DNA of 36,735 nucleotides. Source: a virus. This document shows positions 1,797 to 28,994 of this stretch, piece after piece; the first letter of the stretch is position 1; every line of letters starts with the position of its first letter. The notes beneath the pieces were generated by a model that saw only the letters and a program-made list of their open reading frames with translations, was not told the origin of the DNA and made no database searches. The stretch lies in IMG/VR virus record IMGVR_UViG_3300031951_000571, positions 1 to 36,735 of that record; one strand, written 5' to 3'. Made by a program: the position numbers and the translations under genes.

Positions 1797-1818
1797 GGTT
1801 CAATTTCCTTTCAGTTGG
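1797..1818 (-). promoter_or_regulatory. Repeated translation-initiation leader, copy 2
   Basis: The minus-strand sequence before the DUF669 start reads AACTGAAAGGAAATTGAACC then ATG. It is a lengthened variant of the AACTGGAGAACTGAAC leader seen before other genes of this operon. The TGA inside AACTGA is the stop codon of the upstream ATPase gene, so termination and re-initiation are close together. Confidence 0.45.
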
Positions 1819-2542
1819 CGATGGATGTTGCAAAGCTCTCCCAAGACAGCGGGAGGGAATCGGGCAGGCCGTAGCGGTTCTTGGCCAGGTAGGCGGGTTT
1901 CTCGGTCGTGTACATCAGGCGCTCGCCGGTGGTCACACCGCGGCGCACTTCCTTGTTGAAGCCGACCTCAGTTTCTTTGGTGATGACGCGGTAGTTGCAA
2001 AAGAGCACGGCGTCGCACCACTCTTGAATCAGCGCGCTGCTGCGCTCCTGGAGCTTGGGGCGGTAGCGGTCATAGGGCTCCGTCTCAGGCGAGTCAAAGC
2101 GTTTGATCTCGGTGTGGGCGATTAAGACCACGGCCATGCCGCGCTCGTCACGCAGCGCGTTTAAGCCTTCTAAGATCTGGCGCCAGTAGCCAGCGGCGAT
2201 CACCGCACCCTTGCCGTAGGCAAGATCTTTCTCCTGGTGCGTGGCGTGAATGTCAGACCAGATGAGGTTGTCGAGCCAGTCGAGCGAGTCGATGACGACG
2301 GTACCGAAATTGTGATCATCAGAATACAGTGTGCCAATCGCATCAAGCACTTCCTGAAAAGCCGTGGCTAGGGGGAAGTGATCGACCTCGAGGCGGCCCA
2401 GGCCATCCTCGGTGATGATGAAAATCGGGTTCGGTGCGCCGGCGCCGAAGGTGGTTTTGCCCAGGCCGTGTGGTCCATAGATCATCACGCGAGGGGCTTT
2501 GATGCCAGTTGAGCGTTTGATTGAGTTCAGATTGAATGCCAT
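1811..2542 (-). CDS. RecA-fold ATPase, Sak4-like single-strand annealing protein
   Basis: A 243-residue P-loop ATPase with Walker A GPHGLGKTT (G23-T31) and Walker B TVVIDSLDWLD (D85), then AVVLIAHTEIKRFDSPE, a sensor-like strand. Length and motif order fit the phage AAA_24/Sak4 group, short RecA-related proteins that assist annealing of single strands. Its neighbours, a Cas4-like exonuclease and a DUF669 ssDNA-binding protein, complete a typical phage recombination set: resection, coating and annealing. The start is supported by AGCTGAAAG upstream. The conserved hydrophobic strand IFIITEDGLG follows the P-loop as expected. A general phage nucleotide-binding protein without annealing activity cannot be excluded. 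Confidence 0.75.
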   Translation of the reverse strand: MAFNLNSIKRSTGIKAPRVMIYGPHGLGKTTFGAGAPNPIFIITEDGLGRLEVDHFPLATAFQEVLDAIGTLYSDDHNFGTVVIDSLDWLDNLIWSDIHATHQEKDLAYGKGAVIAAGYWRQILEGLNALRDERGMAVVLIAHTEIKRFDSPETEPYDRYRPKLQERSSALIQEWCDAVLFCNYRVITKETEVGFNKEVRRGVTTGERLMYTTEKPAYLAKNRYGLPDSLPLSWESFATSIAN

Positions 2543-17940: not shown

Positions 17941-18403
17941 GTACGCTGTAATCGAGGCGCTGCCAGAGCACGTGGCGCCCATGCTGCCCATCATCCGGCC
18001 AGAAGATGTGGAGGAATTATGGGCGGCCAATCGCGTGAGCCCGGAGTACGCGCTCAAGCACGGGATCGCCTGTTCGACGGCGAGCTGGACCGGCACGGTC
18101 GACGGGCGGCCGGTGTGCATGTTTGGTGTGGCGCCAGCCTCGATGTTGGGTTCGGTGGGTGTGCCGTGGATGATCGGAACGGTGGAGATCGATCGACACG
18201 CAAAAGCCTTTTTGAAACGCAACAAGGCGTATGTAGCTCGCATGGCCACACTGTACAATTATCTAGTGAACTACGTGGATTCCCGCAACACGCGAGCCAT
18301 TGGCTGGCTAAAGTGGCTGGGCTTTACGATACACGATGCACAACCGCACGGGCCTGATGGCGTGCCGTTTCATCGTTTCGATATGAGAGCGAATCATGTG
18401 TGA
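17927..18403 (+). CDS. GNAT-like small virion protein (T7 gp13-like)
   Basis: The 158-residue product has a TTG start at 17927 supported by CCGGAGG seven bases upstream. The fold is acetyltransferase-like: EDVEELWAANRVSPEYAL, then CMFGVAP, PWMIGTVEID and a final ARAIGWLKWLGFTIHD, typical of GNAT-like phage proteins in the position of T7 gp13 (internal virion protein A). In T7 this protein is needed for core assembly although not part of the mature core. Whether acetyltransferase activity remains is unknown. It overlaps the end of tail tubular B by 14 bp. Confidence 0.75.
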   Translation: MAAHEYAVIEALPEHVAPMLPIIRPEDVEELWAANRVSPEYALKHGIACSTASWTGTVDGRPVCMFGVAPASMLGSVGVPWMIGTVEIDRHAKAFLKRNKAYVARMATLYNYLVNYVDSRNTRAIGWLKWLGFTIHDAQPHGPDGVPFHRFDMRANHV

Positions 18404-18866
18404 CATTATGACCGCGCTGGCTGTAGCAGGATCTGCTGTAAGCGCATCTGCAAGTATGCAGCAGGCCGAAGACGCTCGAAACATGGCGGCGTACAACAAG
18501 CAGGTGCGCGATTATCAAGCGCAAGACACGCTTGCACGCGGCGCCGTGGAAGAGCAAAAGCAGCGCGAACAAGGTCGCCAACTCATGGGACGTCAGCGCG
18601 CCGCCATGGGTGCATCGGGCGTCATGGCAGACTCCGGCTCATTTGGTGACGTGCTGGTGCAGTCGTCCGAGATGAGCGAGCGCGATGCGCTGACCATTCG
18701 CAACAACGCGATGCGCGCTGCGTGGGGTTACGAAACACAAGGTGCTGCTGAAGAGTTTGAGGGGCGTGCTAGGTCGCGGGCATACCAGGGCCAGGCACTG
18801 GGTTCTGTGCTGACGGGCGCTGGCAACGTCTACGCGGCCGGTATCAAGAAACAGTGGTGGGAGTAA
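18396..18866 (+). CDS. Internal virion/ejection protein (T7 gp14-like)
   Basis: A 156-residue Ala-rich, mainly helical protein. It begins MCDIMTALAVAGSAVSASAS, an N-terminal amphipathic or membrane-active helix, then a coiled-coil-like charged region (QKQREQGRQLMGRQRAAMGA) and SGVMADSGSFGDVL. This layout is typical of the T7 gp14 group, ejected into the outer membrane to form the first part of the DNA channel. Gene order supports this. It overlaps the previous gene by 8 bp. Confidence 0.75.
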   Translation: MCDIMTALAVAGSAVSASASMQQAEDARNMAAYNKQVRDYQAQDTLARGAVEEQKQREQGRQLMGRQRAAMGASGVMADSGSFGDVLVQSSEMSERDALTIRNNAMRAAWGYETQGAAEEFEGRARSRAYQGQALGSVLTGAGNVYAAGIKKQWWE

Positions 18867-18869
18867 GCG

Positions 18870-21284
18870 ATGCCGCGCATTCCAGTCTATGAGCAAACGC
18901 AGGAGCAGGTTACTAACCTGCCCAGTCCGTCAATCAATCCGGTCATGCCCAACGCCGGCGAGGCAATTTCCTCTGCGGTAAGCGGTGTCATGAACGCGAT
19001 CAATAGAGCGCGGGAGGAAGCCGATCAGTTTCGCGCACAGGATGCAATCAACAAGCTCAACCTGGCTGACAACGAGCTGCTGTTTGGCAATGGCACGTCA
19101 TCGGATGCGCCGGCATCCAACATGCAAGGTGTGGCATCTCAAGTCAACAATGCTCTGCAGGGCGGCCAGCGTGAAATGGGCGCACTGAACTACAAAGGCG
19201 AGGCGGCGCTTAATCGCGGCGAAGGCAACAAGCCGCTCTCGGAAGAGTACAGCGCCAAATACCAGGCCAGGATTAGTGAGATTGCCGGCACGCTGGGCAA
19301 TGACAATCAGCGTCGGCAGTTTTTGCTCAACGCCGAGCGCATGCGTGCCGGGTTCGACGAGCGCGTGCGCAATCACGAGATGCAGCAGGGAGACGTCTAC
19401 AAAGAGAGCGTCTACAAAGGCTCCGTGGCCGTCGAGAATCAGCGCGCAGCGCGCTACTACGACAACCCAACCGAATTGCAGAGCGCCATGGGTCGCATCG
19501 TTGAAGAGACGACCCGCTACGCGATGAGCAAGGGCATGAGCAAAGACGCGACCAAAGCCCTGGTACTTGAAGCCCAGAGCAACATGCACTCGATCGTGAT
19601 TAACCGACTATTGGAAGAGCAAAAGCCACTGGCGGCTAAAGCGTATTTTGATTTGCACCGCGACGCGATCGATGCCAAAGACACGAGCGCAGCGATCAAA
19701 GCGGTCGGCGTGGTCGGCATTGACGCCGAGGTGTCGGACTTTGTCGACAAATTAGTAAACGGCGATTTTGGCCCCGGAGGCGATGACCGCAAGCCATTTC
19801 AAATCGACAAGATGGCCAACGAAATTCGCAGCAAGTACAAGAACAACCCACAAGCGCGTGACGTGGCGATTAAGCAACTGGTTGAGCGCAAGCAATTGCA
19901 CGACGCTGGCGTCGCTGAGCGGCTGCAAAACGACAACGGTCAGACAGTGAATGTGGCTGTTTCGTTAGTTCAAAACGCAAATAAGCCAACCAGTGATGAC
20001 GGCATCTACGATTTAGAGAAGGCAATTAAAAGTCTGCGCGAGGATCTAACTTTAAAGGATAAGCCAGATCTTTTGGCTAAAGCGGAAGCGAGACTGACGC
20101 AGGATTACAACGTGTGGTTGGCTGCGTCGACCAAACGCAATGAGGAGCGTGTAGGCAAGCTTTGGGGATTGGTGGCGGACGGTGTGACGCTAGAGGCTAT
20201 TCAAAAGTCTGACCCCTATAAACAACTGGGCCCGGTGCAGCGCAAAAAATTTGAGGACGATCTCCGCAGAGATGAAGACCAGCGCGCAGCAGCACGCGAT
20301 GCGCGTGAGAGTCGTGACTGGGCACGAGAGCAGCGCTCAAACAGCAAGAACGAAGATGCGGTCTGGACCGCTGCAGGCCGCGGTGAAACGCTTGATGCGA
20401 TCACAAAGAAGCCCGAGTGGGCCAACTTGCCTGGCAGCATCCAAGAAAGACTGCGCCAGCAGATTTCCTCTGCGCGCAATACAGAAGAATTGCGCAAGCT
20501 GCAAGAGAAGCAGCGCACTGAGAACACCAACCGCGACGCTGTCTGGAATGCGGTGCTGGCTAAGCAGCCAATGGCCAAGATCCGCGGTATGCCCGAGTGG
20601 AAAGCCCTGGGCGGCACTGATCGGGCGCAGCTTGAGAACCAGATTGAGAATTTCCGAAAACCAGAAGGAATGAGCGCAGGCAGCAGAGAAGAAATGCGCA
20701 TCAATCAGGACGCCAATTATCAGATGCTGACAGAAGATCCAGACAGACTAGCCCGTATGTCAGAGGACGAAATTCGGGCGCTTGTACCAGATCTTGGTCG
20801 AGGTAATGTAAGCAAGGCTATTACCTACAAGCGCAAACTTCAGACAGACGCAGCCACCGTCAAGTTCGACAAAGACTTGCTGGATTCGCGTGCCTTTAAG
20901 GCAGGCATTGCGGTGTATGACGCGGACGGCAAAACTGACAAAGGCAAAAGAATTAAGGCCACAATGGCGCAGCTCAACGATCGTGTTGAAGAAGTCATTT
21001 TAGCCAAGCAGAAGAACCTGGGCCGACCACTGCGTGAAGATGAAAAGACGCAAGTTATCGACACTTTGTTGATGGTGGGCCCCGTCAGAATGCAGCAAAA
21101 AGGCGGCTTGTTTGGCAGTGGCTCCATTAGCTACGAGGACAAGCGCGTCTTTGAGGTGCGTGATATGAGCAATTTTGGCCGGCCAGGCGATCGCGAAAAG
21201 GTCATCAATGCCTACACAGCCAAGGGCGTGCAGCCGACAGAAGAACAGATTCTGCGTGGCATCGCTGCGCTCAACAAGAAATAG
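18870..21284 (+). CDS. Internal virion/ejection protein (T7 gp15-like)
   Basis: An 804-residue, almost entirely helical, highly charged protein close in length to T7 gp15 (747). It starts MPRIPVYEQTQEQVTNLP, then has long helices (AKYQARISEIAGTLGNDNQR, KDATKALVLEAQSNMHSIV). Residues 430-600 carry two similar units (ARDARESRDWAREQ-, AVWTAAGRGETLDAITKKPEW and AVWNAVLAKQPMAKIRGMPEW). The repeated AVW-A-x-G/K motif suggests internal duplication. It likely forms the inner core and periplasmic tunnel during DNA ejection together with its neighbours. No enzymatic motif is visible. Confidence 0.72.
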   Translation: MPRIPVYEQTQEQVTNLPSPSINPVMPNAGEAISSAVSGVMNAINRAREEADQFRAQDAINKLNLADNELLFGNGTSSDAPASNMQGVASQVNNALQGGQREMGALNYKGEAALNRGEGNKPLSEEYSAKYQARISEIAGTLGNDNQRRQFLLNAERMRAGFDERVRNHEMQQGDVYKESVYKGSVAVENQRAARYYDNPTELQSAMGRIVEETTRYAMSKGMSKDATKALVLEAQSNMHSIVINRLLEEQKPLAAKAYFDLHRDAIDAKDTSAAIKAVGVVGIDAEVSDFVDKLVNGDFGPGGDDRKPFQIDKMANEIRSKYKNNPQARDVAIKQLVERKQLHDAGVAERLQNDNGQTVNVAVSLVQNANKPTSDDGIYDLEKAIKSLREDLTLKDKPDLLAKAEARLTQDYNVWLAASTKRNEERVGKLWGLVADGVTLEAIQKSDPYKQLGPVQRKKFEDDLRRDEDQRAAARDARESRDWAREQRSNSKNEDAVWTAAGRGETLDAITKKPEWANLPGSIQERLRQQISSARNTEELRKLQEKQRTENTNRDAVWNAVLAKQPMAKIRGMPEWKALGGTDRAQLENQIENFRKPEGMSAGSREEMRINQDANYQMLTEDPDRLARMSEDEIRALVPDLGRGNVSKAITYKRKLQTDAATVKFDKDLLDSRAFKAGIAVYDADGKTDKGKRIKATMAQLNDRVEEVILAKQKNLGRPLREDEKTQVIDTLLMVGPVRMQQKGGLFGSGSISYEDKRVFEVRDMSNFGRPGDREKVINAYTAKGVQPTEEQILRGIAALNKK

Positions 21285-21293
21285 GACAACGAC

Positions 21294-24200
21294 ATGGGGC
21301 AGCGCGACCTTGAAACTCTGATTGGCAACGAGCTGCTGCTGGAAGAGAAGTCCCAGCGCACCAGGCAGTCGTTGTCATTTGGTTTTCAGCAAAACCCAGA
21401 TGATTACGCCAAGAACTTAAAGCTTGGCAACAAGAGTGGCGTGTCGGCCGAGTTTGCTGCCGACAACAAGTTTGATCTCGAGCGCATCAACCGCATGCGC
21501 AATTTGCCGATCGATCAGATCCAGCGGCAAACACCCAAAACCTCGGAGTACTTTTCCAACCGGGACAACGCTGCGGTATCGCACGACGATCTGGATCTGT
21601 TTGGCACGATCGAGAACACACTGCGCTCTGTACCCGCGGGCCTCGAGCAAGGCTGGGACAAGCAGCGCCAAATGTTTCTCAACTTCAAGGAAGTCATGGG
21701 GACCATTACCCCGTCCGAGAAGGTGCAGCTCAAGCGCCTGGAAACGCTGGCCCAGCAGCGCAGCAAAGAGTTTAAAGACGGTCTACCCAGCTGGACCAAG
21801 GCGGCCAGCGATGTGATTGGCATGAGCGCCTACTCGGTGCTCGATGCGTTGAAGTACGAAGGCGCAATCGGCATGGGCACAGGTGCGGCCACAGGCGCAG
21901 CCATGGGCTTGATTGGCGGCCCTGGCGCGCCAGTGACATCAACGGCCGGCGGCGCTACCTTTGGTTTGATTGGCTTAAAGACCGGCACCACGGCAGGCGT
22001 GGTGCTCAACACCTACGAGTCAAGCGTGGGTGAGGTCTACGACGACTTGAAGCAATTTAAGTTTGCCGACGGCACGCAGCTCGATCCCACCGTGGCACGC
22101 TATGCCTCGATCATTGCTGGTGTGCCCAACACGGCACTGGAGACGTTTTCCCTGGGCAAGAGCTTGCGCCTGGTGCCAGGCGCGGACAAGTTAATTGGCA
22201 CGCTTAGCACCCAGCAGATCAAGACCGTGCTCGCACGCCCAACCATGCGCGCAGCCATGAAAGAGATCGGCAAGAAGTATGCCGTGGCTGTAGGCACCGA
22301 GACATTCACCGAAGGCCTGCAAAAGTTCATCTCGATTCTTTCTCGCGAAGCGGCAGCAGAATTTGAAGGCAAGCGCGAGAAGCAGCCCTACAACGCCACA
22401 CAGCTTGCGCAAGACGTCGACGACATCTTGGCTGAGTCTACCGAAGCATTCAAGGCAACCGTTGTTCTAGGCGGCATTGGTGGGGGCACGAAGGCCTACT
22501 CTGCACGTCAGCAGGTTAAGAAAGCAGAACAGTCGCAAGCCGTGTTCGAGGCCCTGGGCGAAACAGCCAGCCAGTCCAACACATTAAAGCGCATGCCGGA
22601 GAAGTTCCGCGAGTTTGTCGCAACCGTCACAGCCGACGGCCCCGTGCAAAACGTCTACATCGATGCGCAGCGCTTTAGCACGTACTTCCAAAGCCAGAGC
22701 ATTGATCCTGCCGCAGCCGCCCAGGAAGCTGGTGTGCGCAACTTTGAAGAGGCTGTGGCCACCGGCACCGACCTGGTAATTCCGATCGACCAATTTGCTG
22801 AGCGCATTGCGCCTACCGAACACCTGGCGGGCCTGCAGCCTGACATGCGACTGCGCCAGGGCGACATTAGCCTGCGCGAAGCCAACGAGTACTTGGCCGA
22901 GCAAGAGGCCATCGACGAAGAAGTGATTGCCCAGGCGCAGGCTTCGGTGGGTGAGATTGACACGCCGGCGACCACCAAGATCCGCGACGACATGACCGGG
23001 CAGCTGATCGCCTCGGGCAGTGATCGCACCACGGCAGAAGCTTATGCCACGCAGTACGCCAAGGTGATCAACAGCCTTGCCACACGCGCAGGCATTGACC
23101 CAGTAGCGCTGCACGAGCAGTACAGCCTGGGCGTATCTCGCCCGCTGCCTGAGATCTTGACGCGTGATACGCGAGCTGACATCAACCTGGATCCTTTGCT
23201 TGACACATTGCGCAGCGGCACGACTCCTACCGACATGGACATCTTTGGCCCGTCGCTAGTGGAGTTTGTGCGTGCGCAGGGCGGCATTTTGCCCACGGGC
23301 GAGCTGGTTGATGCGGACATGAACAACCGGCCATTTCAGCGCAACCTGGTGCAGCTCGCAGGCCTGTCGCCCGATCAGATCGGCGAGCGGGCAGTGGAGG
23401 CTGGATACTTCCCTGGGCGAGACGTGGGCAGCATCACAGAAGCAGACATTTTTGACGCGCTCGATGAAGAGCTGCGCGGTGGCAATCAGCAGTTTGCAGC
23501 GCCGAATTTCAACGAGCAGCTGCTGCAGCAGCGCGACACGATCAACCAGCTGGCCGACTACTTGGACGCGCTGGGCATTGATGTGGGTGCGATTACCGAC
23601 AACGCCCAGGTGCGCCAGCTGATCGACGCGGCGACCCAGCAGGCGGGGCTGGGCGACCAGATCAATGAGCTGTATCAGCGCGTAAGGGCGCAGGCCGAAG
23701 GCAGGAGCGTTCCGAACGAGATCGATGCCGTATCCAATGTGGAGTCGGCATTTGAGTTTGCGGGCAGCCAGTCGTTTCCAACAAACAGGGATTTCAAGCT
23801 TGCGATCCAGGAGCGCGTCAACAACGCTGCCAAGGCGGCCGGCGTAAACCTGGACGAGTTTAGCCAGGGCACCGAAGAGTACCTGGTGCGCATTGCCATG
23901 GCAGACGGCATCACTGCCTTGCGTACCAACGCCAACGCGGTGGGCTGGTACAACGAGAAGGTGACCAAGGCACTGCGCCTGGTGTCGTTGATTCACCCGG
24001 AAGTGTCCACGGATCCGCAGGCCAAGTTTGCTTTTGTGTGGGCAATGGCCGTCACGTCCAACGGCCTGAAGGTCGACAAGAATTTTGAGCTGGCCGAGAT
24101 GGCCTACGAGCAGTGGAAGGCCTCCGGCGGCAAGATGCCTACCGACATCGGCATTGGCACTGCGGCCGGCGCGATCAACAAAGCCATGGGCATGTACAAC

Positions 24201-27200
24201 ACGCTGATCGAAAAGCACGGCTTTGAAGTGGTCGAACGGTTCATGACCACCATGCAGCCCGCTGGTGAGGTGCAGAAGTTCACCGGCCAGAAAATCAGCG
24301 GCGAGAACCTGACGACCATGGTGTACGGCGCCGCAGCGCTAGGTCCGAAGATTGGCAACGGGTTCTTCATGAACCTGTACGGGCGCTTCGAGCAGCTCAC
24401 CATGGACCGCTGGTTGATGCGCACATGGGGCCGCTGGACCGGCACGCTGGTTGAAATCAACCAGGCGCAGATCAAGGCCAAGCGCGCCCAGTTGAAGGAC
24501 GTGATCAAGGCCCTGTCGCCCGCGGACAAAAAGGCCTTTGAAGCCATCATCAAGCGCAAGCTGTCTGTGAGCGATTTGGACGCTGTTGGCGTGGCCATCT
24601 GGAAAGCCAGCCAGAAGCCGGCCAATCGCCTGGAGATGGCCAAGATCGGTGTGTTTGACGAAGCCGGTGCGGCCAAGATCGTCGAGATTATGGGCGAGGC
24701 CAAGAAGGGCACCGAGCGCGTGTCTTTTGGTGACGAGCTGCGCAAGGTTGGCAACGCGCTGACGAAGTACTTGGACGGCCAGAAGGAAGCGCCAAGCGGC
24801 CCGCCGGAGCGCGGCAACATCAGAAAAGTGTTTAGCCGTGTGTTGTCTGAGCTGCAACAGACCTATCCGGCGCTTACAATGTCGGACTATCAGGCACTGC
24901 TTTGGTATCCGGAGAAACGCCTGTATGATGCTGCAAAGACCGCCGAAGAGGCGACCGAGAGCTACGAAGACGACGAGGCACCCGACTATGCCAACGCAGC
25001 AGCCAAACTTGCCAGAGCAAAAGGAATCAGCGACGCCGACATCGCAGACGCCGTCGCAGCCGTCGATGCCGAACTACAGGCCGCAAACGGAGCAGCAGGA
25101 GTTCGACCAGGAGAACGAGGACCTGGAGATCGCGCAGCTGGTCAAGGGAACGTCCTCTACCAAAGCCTAGATCAAGGCGACCCGCTTTCCGACAAGCGCG
25201 GCTTTATCCAGTTTGGCCCGAATCGCAAGTTCAACATTGCGCTGCTTGAAAAAGCAAACCTCTCCACATTCCTGCACGAGACTGGCCACTTCTACCTGGA
25301 AGTGATGGGCGACCTGGCCGAGCGGCCAGACGCCACCCAGCAGATCAAAGACGACTACGCTGCGGTGCTCAAGTATTTGGGCTTGACCTCGCGCGCTGAG
25401 TTGACGCTTGATGGCAAGACGGTCGGCAGCGCAGAGTACAACCGCGCAGTGCAAGCGCACGAGCGCTTTGCCAGATCCAATGAAGCCTACCTGATGGAAG
25501 GCAACGCGCCCAGCGAAGAGCTGCGCCCGCTGTTCCAAAAGTTCAAGGCCTGGCTGGGCTTGATCTACAAGTCCATCACGTCGCTGGACGTCAAGCTCAC
25601 CAACGAGATCCGCGAAGTGTTTGACCGGATCTACGCCACCGACGAGGAAATTGCGGCCGCCAAAGAGCAGGTCAGCAGCGTGCAGATGTTTACCACCGCC
25701 ACTGATATGGGCGTGACGCTGGCGGAATTTGATGCCTACAAAAAGTCCGTCGAGCAGACCGTGGAGTCGGGCAAAGAAGCGCTGCAAGCCAAGCTCATGA
25801 AGCAGATGCAGCGCGAGCGCGAAGCCTGGTGGAAAGAGCGCAAGGCTGAGATGCGCGCCGAGGTCGAGGTCGAAACAGATCTCACGCCTGTGTACGCAGC
25901 CTTCAAAACGCTGACCGAGGGCAAGCTCGAGGACGGCACACCCATTCGCCTGAACAAGCAGGCGCTGGTTGAGCGCTACGGCGAGGATTACTTGAAGCGC
26001 TTGCCGCGCAGCTTTGGCCGCATCTACACTCGCCAAGGCGGCATGGATCCCGAATCGGCGGCCGAGTTCCTGGGTTTTGAGTCCGGCGACAAGCTGATCG
26101 AAGCGCTGGCTGGCATGAAGCCGCGCAACGAGTACATCGCCGCCGAGGTCGACGTGCGCATGCGCGAGGCTTACGGCGACATAATGACCGATGGGACGAT
26201 CGCAGACGAAGCCATCGCAGCGTTGCACAACACGCACCGCGAAGATCTGCTGATGATCGAGCTGAAAGCTTTGCGTCGCAAGCAGCGCGAGGTGGCGCCG
26301 TTTGTGCGCGTGGAGCGCCAACGCCAGGCTGGCGAGCGCCGGCAGGCCAGAGCAGCCATCGAGACGCCGCCCGCCAAAGCTTTCCGGGCAGCCGCGCAAG
26401 GCCTAGTCGGCCAGACCGCCCTGCGCGACTTGGATCCTTACAAGCATCTGCAGGCCTCACGCAAAGCAGCCCGCGAGGCGTCAAACGCTCTGGTGTCGGG
26501 TGACTTCCAGCTGGCAGCAGATGCCAAGCAGCGCGAGCTCCTAAATCACTTCATGTACCTGGAGGCCACCAAAGCCAGGGAAGAAGCAGAGTCAATTCTG
26601 AAGTACGCGCAGCGCTTCGAGAAAGGCACCACGCGCGAGCAAATGGGCAAGGCAGGTGATACCTACCTCGAGCAGATTGACGCCATCCTGGACCGCTACG
26701 AGTTCCGCAGGGTGCCGCTTTCCAGGATTGACCGGCGCCAGTCGCTCGAGCAGTGGATCACTGACCAGGAAGCACAGGGGTTGGAGCCCGCCATCGATGC
26801 GCGCCTGCTCAATGAAGCGCGCCTGGTCAACTATCGCCAGGTGTCCATTGACGAGCTGCGCGCTGTGCGCGACGCGGTCAAGAACATCGAGCACCTGGCG
26901 CGCCTGAAAAACAAGATCGTCACCAAGAACAAAGAGTTTGCATTCCAAGAGGCGATCGCCGAGTTGGTGGCAATTGCTGAAAACAATGGCCAGCGCCGCA
27001 TGCTGCCGCCCGATCTGTCTGCTCTGACCATGCGCGAGAAGGCCGGCGACACGGTGAGTCGGCTTGACTCGCAGCTGCTCAAGATGGAGCAGCTCATCGA
27101 GTGGCTCGACGGCGGTCGCGTCGACGGGCCCTGGCACACCTACTTGTGGAACCCGATCTCCCAGGCACAAAGCGATGAGAACGACCTGCACCGCGATCTG

Positions 27201-28994
27201 ACCGAGAAGATCGTCGCATCGCTTGAGCAAATGCCCAAAGAGCAGCGCAAGTCGATGCTGGACACTTACGACATCCCTGGCATTGGGCGCGTGACGCGCA
27301 AGTACATCATCTCGATGGCGCTTAACCGCGGCAACGAAGAGAACCTGGGCAAGATGCTGCGGGGCCACAACTGGAACATGGACATGGTCGAGGCGGCGTT
27401 TGCCAAGCTCTCGGCAGCAGACTGGCAGTTTGTGCAAGCAACCTGGGACAACATCAATACACTCTGGCCGCAGATCGTCGAGCTTGAGAAGCGCGTCACT
27501 GGCTTGGCACCCAAGAAGGTCGAAGCGCAGGCTTTTGTGGTCACCGTGAACGGGCAAGACATTCAGATGCAAGGCGGCTACTTCCCGCTGGTCTACGACC
27601 CGCGCTTTTCTGAAATGGGCGCCAGGCAAGAATCCGGCAACCTGGGTCAGCTCTTCGAGGAAGGCTATGTGCGTGCGACCACGTCCAAGGGCCACACAGA
27701 AGCGCGCAACCAGGGATTTGCAGCGCCGCTGCAGCTTGATTTTGAGCAGGTCATCACACAGCACACCGGCAAGGTCATCAAAGATTTGACGCACCGCGAA
27801 GCTATCGTGGCGGCCAACAAAATCTTGACCAACAGCGAGATCCGCAACGTGCTGCAAGAAACCTTGGGTCCCGCCTACGAGAAGCAGATGCTGCCTTGGC
27901 TGCGATCGGTGGTGAACGATCGCAACGGCGGCAGCACACAAGGCCTAGCGGACTTCTCGCGCTGGATGATGAGTCTGCGCGCTAACACGGTGGCAGCCGT
28001 CATGGGCTTTAAAGCAACAACCGCAATCATGCAGATCACCGGTTTGTCGGCCTCGCTGGATAAAGTCAGCGCCAAGTACTTGGGCGTCGAGTTTGCGCGC
28101 TTTTTGCGCCATCCGTTACAGATGACCGAGGAGGTGCGCGCGCTTTCGGGCGAAATGCGTAACCGGCCGGCCAACCTGGATCGAGACATCCGCGGCCAGC
28201 TGCGCCAGATGACGGGCCAGAACAGCCTGCTCACCCAAGCGCAGCGCTTTGCCTTTCACGGCATTGCGATCGCCGACACAATGGTCACTGTGCCCACCTG
28301 GATGGCGGCCTACCGCAAGGCTTTGGATGACGGCAAGAGCGAGGACGTGGCGCGCTTGGAGGGTGATGCGGCGGTGCGTCTGACCCAGGGCGCAGGCGGT
28401 CCAAAGGACCTGGCGGCGGTCCAGCGCAACAATGAGCTCATGAAGGCGCTGACGATGTTTTACAGCTACTTCAACGTCTTATACAATCGCATGCGAGACA
28501 TGGGGCGCGATGTCCAGTCCATCACCGATATGCCGCGCTTCCTGGCCAGAGCACTTTTCACCATCGCCATCCCGGCGTTTGCAGCCGACATTATTGTGGG
28601 CCGCGGGCCGGACGACGAGGATGACTATCCGCAATGGCTCGCTCGCAAAATCGCTTTGTATCCACTGATGAGTATTCCGCTACTACGTGACGTTGCCTCA
28701 TCACTGGATTCGGGTTTTGACTACAAGTTCACACCGCTGGCCAGCGGCCTTGAGAAGCTGGCGAAACTGGGTAAAGCCACTGCCAAAGCAGTAACCGACG
28801 AAGACGAGATGCAGTGGGGCGGCTTTGCAGTCAAGGCTGCCGAGACAATCGGTTACCTGGCAGGCGTACCTGGCACAGCGCAGGTGAGCGCTACGGGCAA
28901 GTACCTGTGGCGCGTGAACGAGGGCGAAGAGGAAGCAGACAATTTTGCCGAGCTGTTGTTTTACGCGGCAATGGGTAAACGGAAGGAAAATTAA
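21294..28994 (+). CDS. Giant internal virion/ejection protein with multiple domains
   Basis: At 2566 residues this is about twice T7 gp16 and takes its place as the last core gene. Visible parts: residues 1-190 helical N-terminus; about 190-240 a Gly/Ala-rich hydrophobic stretch (GMGTGAATGAAMGLIGGPG), probably membrane-inserting; about 840-1120 a domain with VYGAAALGPKIGNGFFMNLY (1012 onward) and TMDRWLMRTWGR (D1038), resembling HhH-GPD DNA glycosylases in outline; HETGH at 1328-1332, a zincin metalloprotease motif; long coiled-coil segments to about 2000; a C-terminal region with FYSYFNVLYNRMRDMGR and hydrophobic helices. Such mosaic giants resemble the polyvalent proteins injected with phage DNA. 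Likely roles are DNA ejection plus early host modification. I see no lytic transglycosylase motif, unlike T7 gp16. Three long antisense frames are not genes. Confidence 0.8.
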   Translation: MGQRDLETLIGNELLLEEKSQRTRQSLSFGFQQNPDDYAKNLKLGNKSGVSAEFAADNKFDLERINRMRNLPIDQIQRQTPKTSEYFSNRDNAAVSHDDLDLFGTIENTLRSVPAGLEQGWDKQRQMFLNFKEVMGTITPSEKVQLKRLETLAQQRSKEFKDGLPSWTKAASDVIGMSAYSVLDALKYEGAIGMGTGAATGAAMGLIGGPGAPVTSTAGGATFGLIGLKTGTTAGVVLNTYESSVGEVYDDLKQFKFADGTQLDPTVARYASIIAGVPNTALETFSLGKSLRLVPGADKLIGTLSTQQIKTVLARPTMRAAMKEIGKKYAVAVGTETFTEGLQKFISILSREAAAEFEGKREKQPYNATQLAQDVDDILAESTEAFKATVVLGGIGGGTKAYSARQQVKKAEQSQAVFEALGETASQSNTLKRMPEKFREFVATVTADGPVQNVYIDAQRFSTYFQSQSIDPAAAAQEAGVRNFEEAVATGTDLVIPIDQFAERIAPTEHLAGLQPDMRLRQGDISLREANEYLAEQEAIDEEVIAQAQASVGEIDTPATTKIRDDMTGQLIASGSDRTTAEAYATQYAKVINSLATRAGIDPVALHEQYSLGVSRPLPEILTRDTRADINLDPLLDTLRSGTTPTDMDIFGPSLVEFVRAQGGILPTGELVDADMNNRPFQRNLVQLAGLSPDQIGERAVEAGYFPGRDVGSITEADIFDALDEELRGGNQQFAAPNFNEQLLQQRDTINQLADYLDALGIDVGAITDNAQVRQLIDAATQQAGLGDQINELYQRVRAQAEGRSVPNEIDAVSNVESAFEFAGSQSFPTNRDFKLAIQERVNNAAKAAGVNLDEFSQGTEEYLVRIAMADGITALRTNANAVGWYNEKVTKALRLVSLIHPEVSTDPQAKFAFVWAMAVTSNGLKVDKNFELAEMAYEQWKASGGKMPTDIGIGTAAGAINKAMGMYNTLIEKHGFEVVERFMTTMQPAGEVQKFTGQKISGENLTTMVYGAAALGPKIGNGFFMNLYGRFEQLTMDRWLMRTWGRWTGTLVEINQAQIKAKRAQLKDVIKALSPADKKAFEAIIKRKLSVSDLDAVGVAIWKASQKPANRLEMAKIGVFDEAGAAKIVEIMGEAKKGTERVSFGDELRKVGNALTKYLDGQKEAPSGPPERGNIRKVFSRVLSELQQTYPALTMSDYQALLWYPEKRLYDAAKTAEEATESYEDDEAPDYANAAAKLARAKGISDADIADAVAAVDAELQAANGAAGVRPGERGPGDRAAGQGNVLYQSLDQGDPLSDKRGFIQFGPNRKFNIALLEKANLSTFLHETGHFYLEVMGDLAERPDATQQIKDDYAAVLKYLGLTSRAELTLDGKTVGSAEYNRAVQAHERFARSNEAYLMEGNAPSEELRPLFQKFKAWLGLIYKSITSLDVKLTNEIREVFDRIYATDEEIAAAKEQVSSVQMFTTATDMGVTLAEFDAYKKSVEQTVESGKEALQAKLMKQMQREREAWWKERKAEMRAEVEVETDLTPVYAAFKTLTEGKLEDGTPIRLNKQALVERYGEDYLKRLPRSFGRIYTRQGGMDPESAAEFLGFESGDKLIEALAGMKPRNEYIAAEVDVRMREAYGDIMTDGTIADEAIAALHNTHREDLLMIELKALRRKQREVAPFVRVERQRQAGERRQARAAIETPPAKAFRAAAQGLVGQTALRDLDPYKHLQASRKAAREASNALVSGDFQLAADAKQRELLNHFMYLEATKAREEAESILKYAQRFEKGTTREQMGKAGDTYLEQIDAILDRYEFRRVPLSRIDRRQSLEQWITDQEAQGLEPAIDARLLNEARLVNYRQVSIDELRAVRDAVKNIEHLARLKNKIVTKNKEFAFQEAIAELVAIAENNGQRRMLPPDLSALTMREKAGDTVSRLDSQLLKMEQLIEWLDGGRVDGPWHTYLWNPISQAQSDENDLHRDLTEKIVASLEQMPKEQRKSMLDTYDIPGIGRVTRKYIISMALNRGNEENLGKMLRGHNWNMDMVEAAFAKLSAADWQFVQATWDNINTLWPQIVELEKRVTGLAPKKVEAQAFVVTVNGQDIQMQGGYFPLVYDPRFSEMGARQESGNLGQLFEEGYVRATTSKGHTEARNQGFAAPLQLDFEQVITQHTGKVIKDLTHREAIVAANKILTNSEIRNVLQETLGPAYEKQMLPWLRSVVNDRNGGSTQGLADFSRWMMSLRANTVAAVMGFKATTAIMQITGLSASLDKVSAKYLGVEFARFLRHPLQMTEEVRALSGEMRNRPANLDRDIRGQLRQMTGQNSLLTQAQRFAFHGIAIADTMVTVPTWMAAYRKALDDGKSEDVARLEGDAAVRLTQGAGGPKDLAAVQRNNELMKALTMFYSYFNVLYNRMRDMGRDVQSITDMPRFLARALFTIAIPAFAADIIVGRGPDDEDDYPQWLARKIALYPLMSIPLLRDVASSLDSGFDYKFTPLASGLEKLAKLGKATAKAVTDEDEMQWGGFAVKAAETIGYLAGVPGTAQVSATGKYLWRVNEGEEEADNFAELLFYAAMGKRKEN

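What the first reader, a model, noticed from the sequence alone, without database searches (positions are those of the whole stretch)
25275..25289. HETGH zincin motif in the giant ejected protein
STFLHETGHFYLEVMGD at residues 1324-1340 fits a metalloprotease active site. If active it may process the virion core or cut host proteins on entry. The combination of protease-like, glycosylase-like and membrane segments in a 2566-residue core protein, twice the size of T7 gp16, suggests a polyvalent entry effector.
Basis: partly seen in the sequence, partly recalled or inferred. Interest (0 to 1): 0.55.

Follow-up and report, generated by a model that had tools for sequence, protein, structure and literature searches.

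The report
Phage injection protein with swappable effectors
A giant protein that a virus of bacteria probably injects with its DNA carries an invariant protease-like site right beside a slot whose enzyme contents are swapped between otherwise near-identical viruses, which suggests, without yet proving, that the protease cuts the delivered enzymes loose inside the cell.

Summary
The HETGH motif is real and is a conserved zincin-type site, not chance. It lies at 25275-25289, residues 1328-1332 of a 2566-aa late-operon protein. In a scan that used only the C-terminal part of the family, 72 of 72 copies with the site visible keep HExxH. E1390 and E1397 in the next helix are invariant in 102 of 102 domains. 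The domain is in print: homologue Bbp10 of phage BPP-1 is a seed of the CLCA_X zincin family, and Iyer 2017 describes zincins in phage polyvalent proteins. What I did not find described is the anatomy. The zincin stands between an exchangeable cassette (0-1346 aa; ADP-ribosyltransferase, RNase-like, RadC, GNAT, zeta, GGDEF) and a C-module of near-constant length. Backbones up to 97-98% identical in DNA hold different cassettes, the right border 28-36 codons before HExxH in 7 of 7 chosen pairs. The window's own cassette models as an HhH-GPD DNA-glycosylase fold. Most likely the zincin cuts in cis to free the delivered cassette. Cleavage is not shown, and 18 of 78 members nearly lack a cassette yet keep the motif.

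The parts
21294..28994 (+). Giant protein (2566 aa), homologue of BPP-1 Bbp10, PHROG 9880
21294..23624 (+). Conserved N-module, about residues 1-777 (border set by profile, approximate)
21366..21644 (+). LPD22 domain (PF18834), over its cut-off
23625..25142 (+). Exchangeable cassette as cut by script, residues 778-1283
23841..24989 (+). HhH-GPD DNA-glycosylase-like fold inside the cassette (residues 850-1232, span of the best structure alignments)
   Evidence: model pLDDT 87.6; VIA-align Z 10.9, 8.4, 6.9 to DNA glycosylases
24348..24350 (+). K1019, candidate catalytic Lys
24405..24407 (+). D1038, candidate catalytic Asp, 19 residues after K1019
25158..25799 (+). Zincin domain and adjoining helices, profile match residues 1289-1502
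25275..25289 (+). HETGH, residues 1328-1332
25461..25463 (+). E1390, invariant, candidate third zinc ligand
25482..25484 (+). E1397, invariant, candidate third zinc ligand
25800..28994 (+). Helical C-module of near-constant length; weak T7 gp16 likeness
18396..18866 (+). T7 gp14-like internal virion protein
18870..21284 (+). 804-aa protein in the gp15 position

Best explanation
HETGH is the active-site helix of a CLCA_X / polyvalent-type zincin built into a virion ejection protein made of a conserved N-module, an exchangeable effector cassette, the zincin and a T7 gp16-like C-module. During or after ejection with the phage DNA, the zincin most likely cuts its own polypeptide next to the cassette, so that the cassette (here a DNA-glycosylase-like domain) is set free from the ejection backbone. 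Shown here: motif, conservation, constant spacing, cassette exchange with a border beside the zincin, cassette domain types and, by model, the fold of the window's cassette. Inferred: zinc binding, proteolysis, action in cis, timing, and ejection itself.
For: Catalytic residues invariant (102 of 102; 72 of 72 in the unbiased scan). Distance from HExxH to the C-terminus 1150-1330 aa in 76 of 82 full ORFs, while the upstream part varies from 445 to 2201 aa. Right border of the exchanged segment 28-36 codons before HExxH in 7 of 7 pairs chosen from 11 loci. 22 of 30 cassettes scanned hold Pfam domains above cut-off, mostly effector enzymes, against none in 11 C-modules. Gene order as in T7 and BPP-1. 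Iyer 2017 proposed autoproteolytic release by such domains.
Against: No cleavage was observed by anyone in what I read. N4 vRNAP, with a like domain, is packaged unprocessed and its 2025 study reports no evidence of degradation. 18 of 78 ORFs carry under 60 aa of cassette yet keep the motif. The sheet before the HExxH helix is not confidently modelled. 16 of 80 cassette relatives stand in another backbone with no HExxH in the stretch held.
Confidence: 0.45

Rival explanations
1. Maturation: the zincin processes the protein before or during packaging, so that pieces fit into the head, as proposed for P1 DdrB.
For: P1 DdrB is processed before packaging and has such a domain (Iyer 2017, passage). 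Members without a cassette keep the motif.
Against: N4 vRNAP with a like domain is packaged unprocessed. The exchange border beside the zincin is not explained by it.
Confidence: 0.2
2. Host-directed effector: the zincin cuts host proteins after entry, and the cassette is simply a second effector.
For: Zincins act as effectors in polymorphic toxin systems (Iyer 2017, passage). The other enzymes in the protein are effector types.
Against: Unlike the cassettes it is not exchanged or lost: 72 of 72 complete cases keep it. A host-directed protease would be expected to vary with the host.
Confidence: 0.17
3. Non-cutting zinc domain: the site holds zinc for folding, packaging or regulation of the upstream part.
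For: In N4 vRNAP the region with the domain is needed for packaging and the protein stays whole; the C-terminal domain autoinhibits the polymerase.
Against: The Glu that would be the general base is invariant in 102 of 102. Homology to N4 beyond the motif was not established here.
Confidence: 0.15

Closest known systems
CLCA_X zincin family (Lenart 2013, PMC3650047; passages and section 8 read), seed Bbp10 of phage BPP-1 residues 700-1000
   Same: The window domain is homologous to that seed: profile A1 hits the BPP-1 ORF with 244 bits; HExxH in the seed region.
   Different: The paper calls the proteins long with almost no known domains; the cassette slot is not in the passages read. Consensus there HExxHxxxD; here E in 94 of 102, and E also in BPP-1.
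Polyvalent proteins with zincin-like MPTase (Iyer 2017, PMC5512222; passages read)
   Same: Large multidomain phage proteins with zincin, ART, PBECR, RadC, GNAT, GGDEF, LPD domains; proposed autoproteolysis.
   Different: Fixed slot with sharp exchange border beside the zincin, near-identical backbones with different cassettes, DNA-glycosylase-like cassette (word 'glycosylase' absent from the main text).
T7 gp16 internal core protein
   Same: Gene position after gp14- and gp15-place genes; two best VIA-align rows for the C-module, Z 7.0 and 6.6.
   Different: Twice as long; no N-terminal transglycosylase; T7 gp16 has no HExxH in the sequence.
N4 virion RNA polymerase C-terminal domain
   Same: HExxH 1273 aa from the end, close to the window's 1239; ejected giant protein.
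   Different: hhalign finds only the zincins, weakly; upstream part is a polymerase.
MuF polymorphic toxins of temperate phages (Jamet 2017, PMC5576092; outline and abstract read)
   Same: Phage-encoded, variable toxin domains on a virion-module protein.
   Different: MuF is another backbone domain, in the packaging module; no MuF hit here.
HhH-GPD DNA glycosylases (8-oxoguanine glycosylase, endonuclease III, MutY)
   Same: Fold of the window's cassette: Z 10.9, 8.4, 6.9, next row 4.7; Lys and Asp 19 apart. That human OGG1 has the same spacing is recalled, from no call.
   Different: 4-9% identity; no HhH-GPD Pfam hit among those shown, DUF7178 in 8 of 31 members.

Membership tests
CLCA_X zincins | Sequence homology to a family seed (Bbp10 700-1000) | tested here: met
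   Profile A1 hits the BPP-1 ORF at 244 bits, E 3e-74
CLCA_X zincins | Consensus HExxHxxxD | tested here: inconclusive
   HExxH met; the fourth position holds E in 94 of 102 and D in 2; the seed protein itself has E
Polyvalent MPTase (Iyer 2017) | HExxH helix followed by a helix with a conserved Glu | tested here: met
   Model helices 40-60 and 97-119; E1390 and E1397 invariant
Polyvalent MPTase (Iyer 2017) | Three-stranded sheet before the HExxH helix | tested here: inconclusive
   Two short strands, pLDDT under 60 there
Polyvalent proteins (Iyer 2017) | Several unrelated effector or LPD domains in one phage protein | tested here: met
   LPD22 in the window protein; effector domains in 22 of 30 cassettes of relatives
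Any zinc protease | Zinc binding and peptide-bond cleavage | not testable with these tools
   Needs protein
T7 gp16 | N-terminal lytic transglycosylase domain | tested here: not met
   No such Pfam hit in the window protein; T7 gp16 matches lytic transglycosylases at its N-terminus
T7 gp16 | Homologous C-terminal ejection part | tested here: inconclusive
   VIA-align Z 7.0 and 6.6; hhalign E 0.014 in nearly the same register
N4 vRNAP C-terminal domain | Homology of C1 and C2 | tested here: inconclusive
   hhalign E 0.16 whole, 0.0043 zincins alone, 0.24 for the rest; long N4 chains were not aligned
HhH-GPD DNA glycosylases (cassette) | HhH-GPD fold | tested here: met
   Three best rows Z 10.9, 8.4, 6.9, well above the next at 4.7; Foldseek itself not significant
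HhH-GPD DNA glycosylases (cassette) | Base excision activity | not testable with these tools
   Needs protein; Lys and Asp are conserved
MuF polymorphic toxins | MuF domain | tested here: not met
   No MuF hit in the window protein

The most novel reading that the evidence does not exclude
Tailed phages run a polymorphic delivery system in their ejection proteins: effector cassettes are exchanged by recombination into a fixed slot beside a self-cutting zincin, ride on a gp16-like module through the envelope and are cut free inside the cell; one common cassette is a DNA glycosylase that reaches the host together with the phage genome.
Probability: 0.38. Interest if true: 0.85.

Novelty: new variant of a known kind. 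Interest (0 to 1): 0.62.

Why it matters
If the zincin frees exchanged cassettes, one conserved backbone tells where a phage keeps its first-minute effectors, so that unknown anti-host or anti-defence enzymes can be read off many phage genomes by slot position alone. It makes two open questions testable with one active-site change: what giant ejection proteins do, and whether they are processed. An ejected DNA glycosylase would be an unexpected early act on DNA.

Tried and rejected
Pfam LPD38 in the own record: no match, and its control rang nowhere, so uninformative. A peptidoglycan hydrolase in the giant protein: none. A curated Pfam zincin family: none above cut-off. NCBIfam: none. Sequence search of solved structures: nothing for the window protein, only weak rows of no evident relation with profile A1. 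Near DNA match of window 1-25000 to named phages: none. Homology of the N4 vRNAP C2 part to the C-module, suggested by the equal spacing: not supported by hhalign. Foldseek against PDB gave no row at E 0.001 for either model. No known zincin protease stood among the listed VIA rows, which is no evidence against that fold. BFVD gave 76 matches at E 0.001, among them phage proteins named ART-PolyVal-like, nuclease, MuF C-terminal and N-acetyltransferase; I did not inspect them.

Results against my reading: 18 of 78 full ORFs carry under 60 aa of cassette and keep the motif. Of 174 pairs with a cassette match of 100 aa or more, the cassette is more alike than the C-module by 10 points or more in 13, but less alike by 10 or more in 48; most cassettes simply diverge faster, and the exchange argument rests on the extreme pairs and on seven close backbones. 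Those seven pairs were chosen by me from 11 related loci; by protein alignment their right border lies 36-73 residues before HExxH, by DNA 28-36. 16 of 80 loci found with the cassette profile sit in giant ORFs without the N-module, zincin or C-module profiles (phrog_3003 and phrog_684 in the two scanned) and show no HExxH in the stretch held, which ends about 3 kb after the match, so a zincin further on is not excluded. Assembly chimeras cannot be excluded for single cases, but the 445-, 1346- and 138-aa cassettes each occur in two or more contigs. Rows dropped: 4 of 82 full ORFs have no recognised N-module and were left out of the cassette counts (L075, L099, L132, L133); two of these (L075, L099) look like split or shortened ORFs.

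Full report
Observation. The ORF 21294-28994 (2566 aa) carries HETGH at 25275-25289, residues 1328-1332. It is the only HExxH of the protein, where composition predicts 0.013. The window is a podovirus-type virus record: terminase, head-tail adaptor, protease, major head protein, two tail proteins, a T7 gp14-like internal virion protein, an 804-aa protein in the gp15 place, the giant protein, then tail fibre genes. Bordetella phage BPP-1 has the same order, with bbp10 as the giant protein.

Conservation. tblastn of the domain finds 42 of 50,697 phage records. In 102 aligned non-redundant domains H1328, E1329, H1332, E1390, A1393, E1397, Y1399, G1403, P1406 and F1414 are invariant. Because the patterns contain the motif, I repeated the search with a profile of window residues 1584-2480 only. 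From 80 loci 77 non-redundant C-modules remain; 74 overlap the zincin and 72 of 72 with the site visible have HExxH; the other five are cut by a contig start or lie in a split ORF. All 11 named-phage homologues fetched keep it too.

Fold. AlphaFold on residues 1284-2480 with 60 sequences gave mean pLDDT 82.3. HExxH lies in helix 40-60 and E1390/E1397 in helix 97-119 of the model, the order that Iyer 2017 gives for this zincin type (passage); the strands before it are uncertain. The domain is homologous to a seed of the CLCA_X zincin family, residues 700-1000 of Bbp10 (Lenart 2013; passages and section 8 read; profile match). Pfam showed no zincin model above cut-off for it.

Anatomy. In 82 full-length ORFs the distance from HExxH to the end is 1150-1330 aa in 76 (median 1241), while the part before it varies from 445 to 2201 aa. 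The variation lies in one slot between an N-module (LPD22 and on, about residues 1-777) and the zincin. Cassette length is 0-1346 aa; of 78 ORFs with an N-module, 58 have 120 aa or more, 2 have 60-119 and 18 under 60. Of 30 cassettes scanned (from 44 of 200 aa or more), 22 hold a Pfam domain above cut-off: ART-PolyVal 12, PBECR3/5 5, GNAT 4 (one at the cut-off), RadC 3, LPD3 2, DUF7178 2, LPD23, zeta toxin and GGDEF 1 each. In 11 C-modules scanned no effector domain was found.

Exchange. Related loci have C-modules 85-97% identical whose cassettes do not match (first 20 such pairs printed). In seven pairs that I chose from 11 loci, DNA identity is 82-98% on both sides and stops at codons about 800-830 of the ORF on the left and 28-36 codons before HExxH on the right. 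The clearest pair, L013 and L058, is 97.9% identical over 2452 nt and 97.5% over 3822 nt, with cassettes of 445 and 1346 aa that share only a 27%-identical piece. The window's own cassette is 97.4% identical to that of L005 (C-module 84.8%), which has a further ART domain between it and the zincin, and 65.7% identical to that of MW202722, whose C-module is only 27% identical.

The window's cassette. It has no Pfam hit at E 0.01 but 247 relatives in IMG/VR, of which the best 80 were kept; 55 of the 80 stand in an ORF with this zincin in the stretch held, 9 more show the N-module only, 16 none of the three modules. AlphaFold gave pLDDT 87.6. VIA-align's first three rows are DNA glycosylases (8-oxoguanine glycosylase Z 10.9 over 193 residues of a 205-residue chain, endonuclease III 8.4, MutY homologue 6.9), then 4.7; Foldseek alone was not significant. 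GPK stands 19 residues before an Asp in 76 of 76 distinct ORFs; the Asp-Trp part was in a search pattern, the Lys was not. I had written this fold down from the motif before the search (note). Substrate and activity are unknown. A search for DUF7178 in the paper library found no paper, and one for DNA glycosylase with polyvalent protein and phage found one, whose passage concerns T4 endonuclease V.

C-module. The two best VIA-align rows are T7 gp16 chains (Z 7.0 and 6.6), in nearly the same register as a weak hhalign match around GGYFPLVYD / KGTYVPHVYD (E 0.014). Both are below firm significance. Together with gene order I take an ejection role as likely, not shown. For N4 vRNAP, whose HExxH lies 1273 aa from its end, relation beyond the zincin was not found.

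Mechanism. The slot border at the zincin, the invariance of the catalytic residues and the mixture of enzyme types fit a protease that frees what stands upstream of it. Members without a cassette keep the motif, so the cut may mainly part N- and C-module, the cassette being set free as a consequence. Rivals are maturation cutting, a host-directed protease and a non-cutting zinc domain; N4 vRNAP, packaged whole, speaks for the last. No experiment was available.

Verdict.

Noticed in passing
L312:1015-6747, L309:1177-6747: The glycosylase-like cassette also sits in giant virion proteins with another backbone (phrog_3003 at the N-terminal side, phrog_684 at the C-terminal side) and no HExxH in the stretch held.
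   Followed up: partly
named homologues of window 21294-28994: Records call this family 'lysin' or 'crystallin beta/gamma motif-containing protein', names that seem to follow the BPP-1 annotation and are not supported by anything found here.
   Followed up: no
L133:2598-8699: A virus record assigned to a methanogen host (BK063671) encodes a family member with HExxH.
   Followed up: no
L026:4351: The cassette of L026 holds a second HExxH (HEIQH) near LPD23 and GNAT domains.
   Followed up: no
window:18870-21284: The gp15-position protein matches families named endolysin over residues 103-298 only, and Pfam finds no lysozyme or transglycosylase domain in it.
   Followed up: no
window:80-1177 and 1811-2542, minus strand: Early genes on the other strand encode a Cas4-domain exonuclease and a Sak4-like annealing protein.
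   Followed up: no
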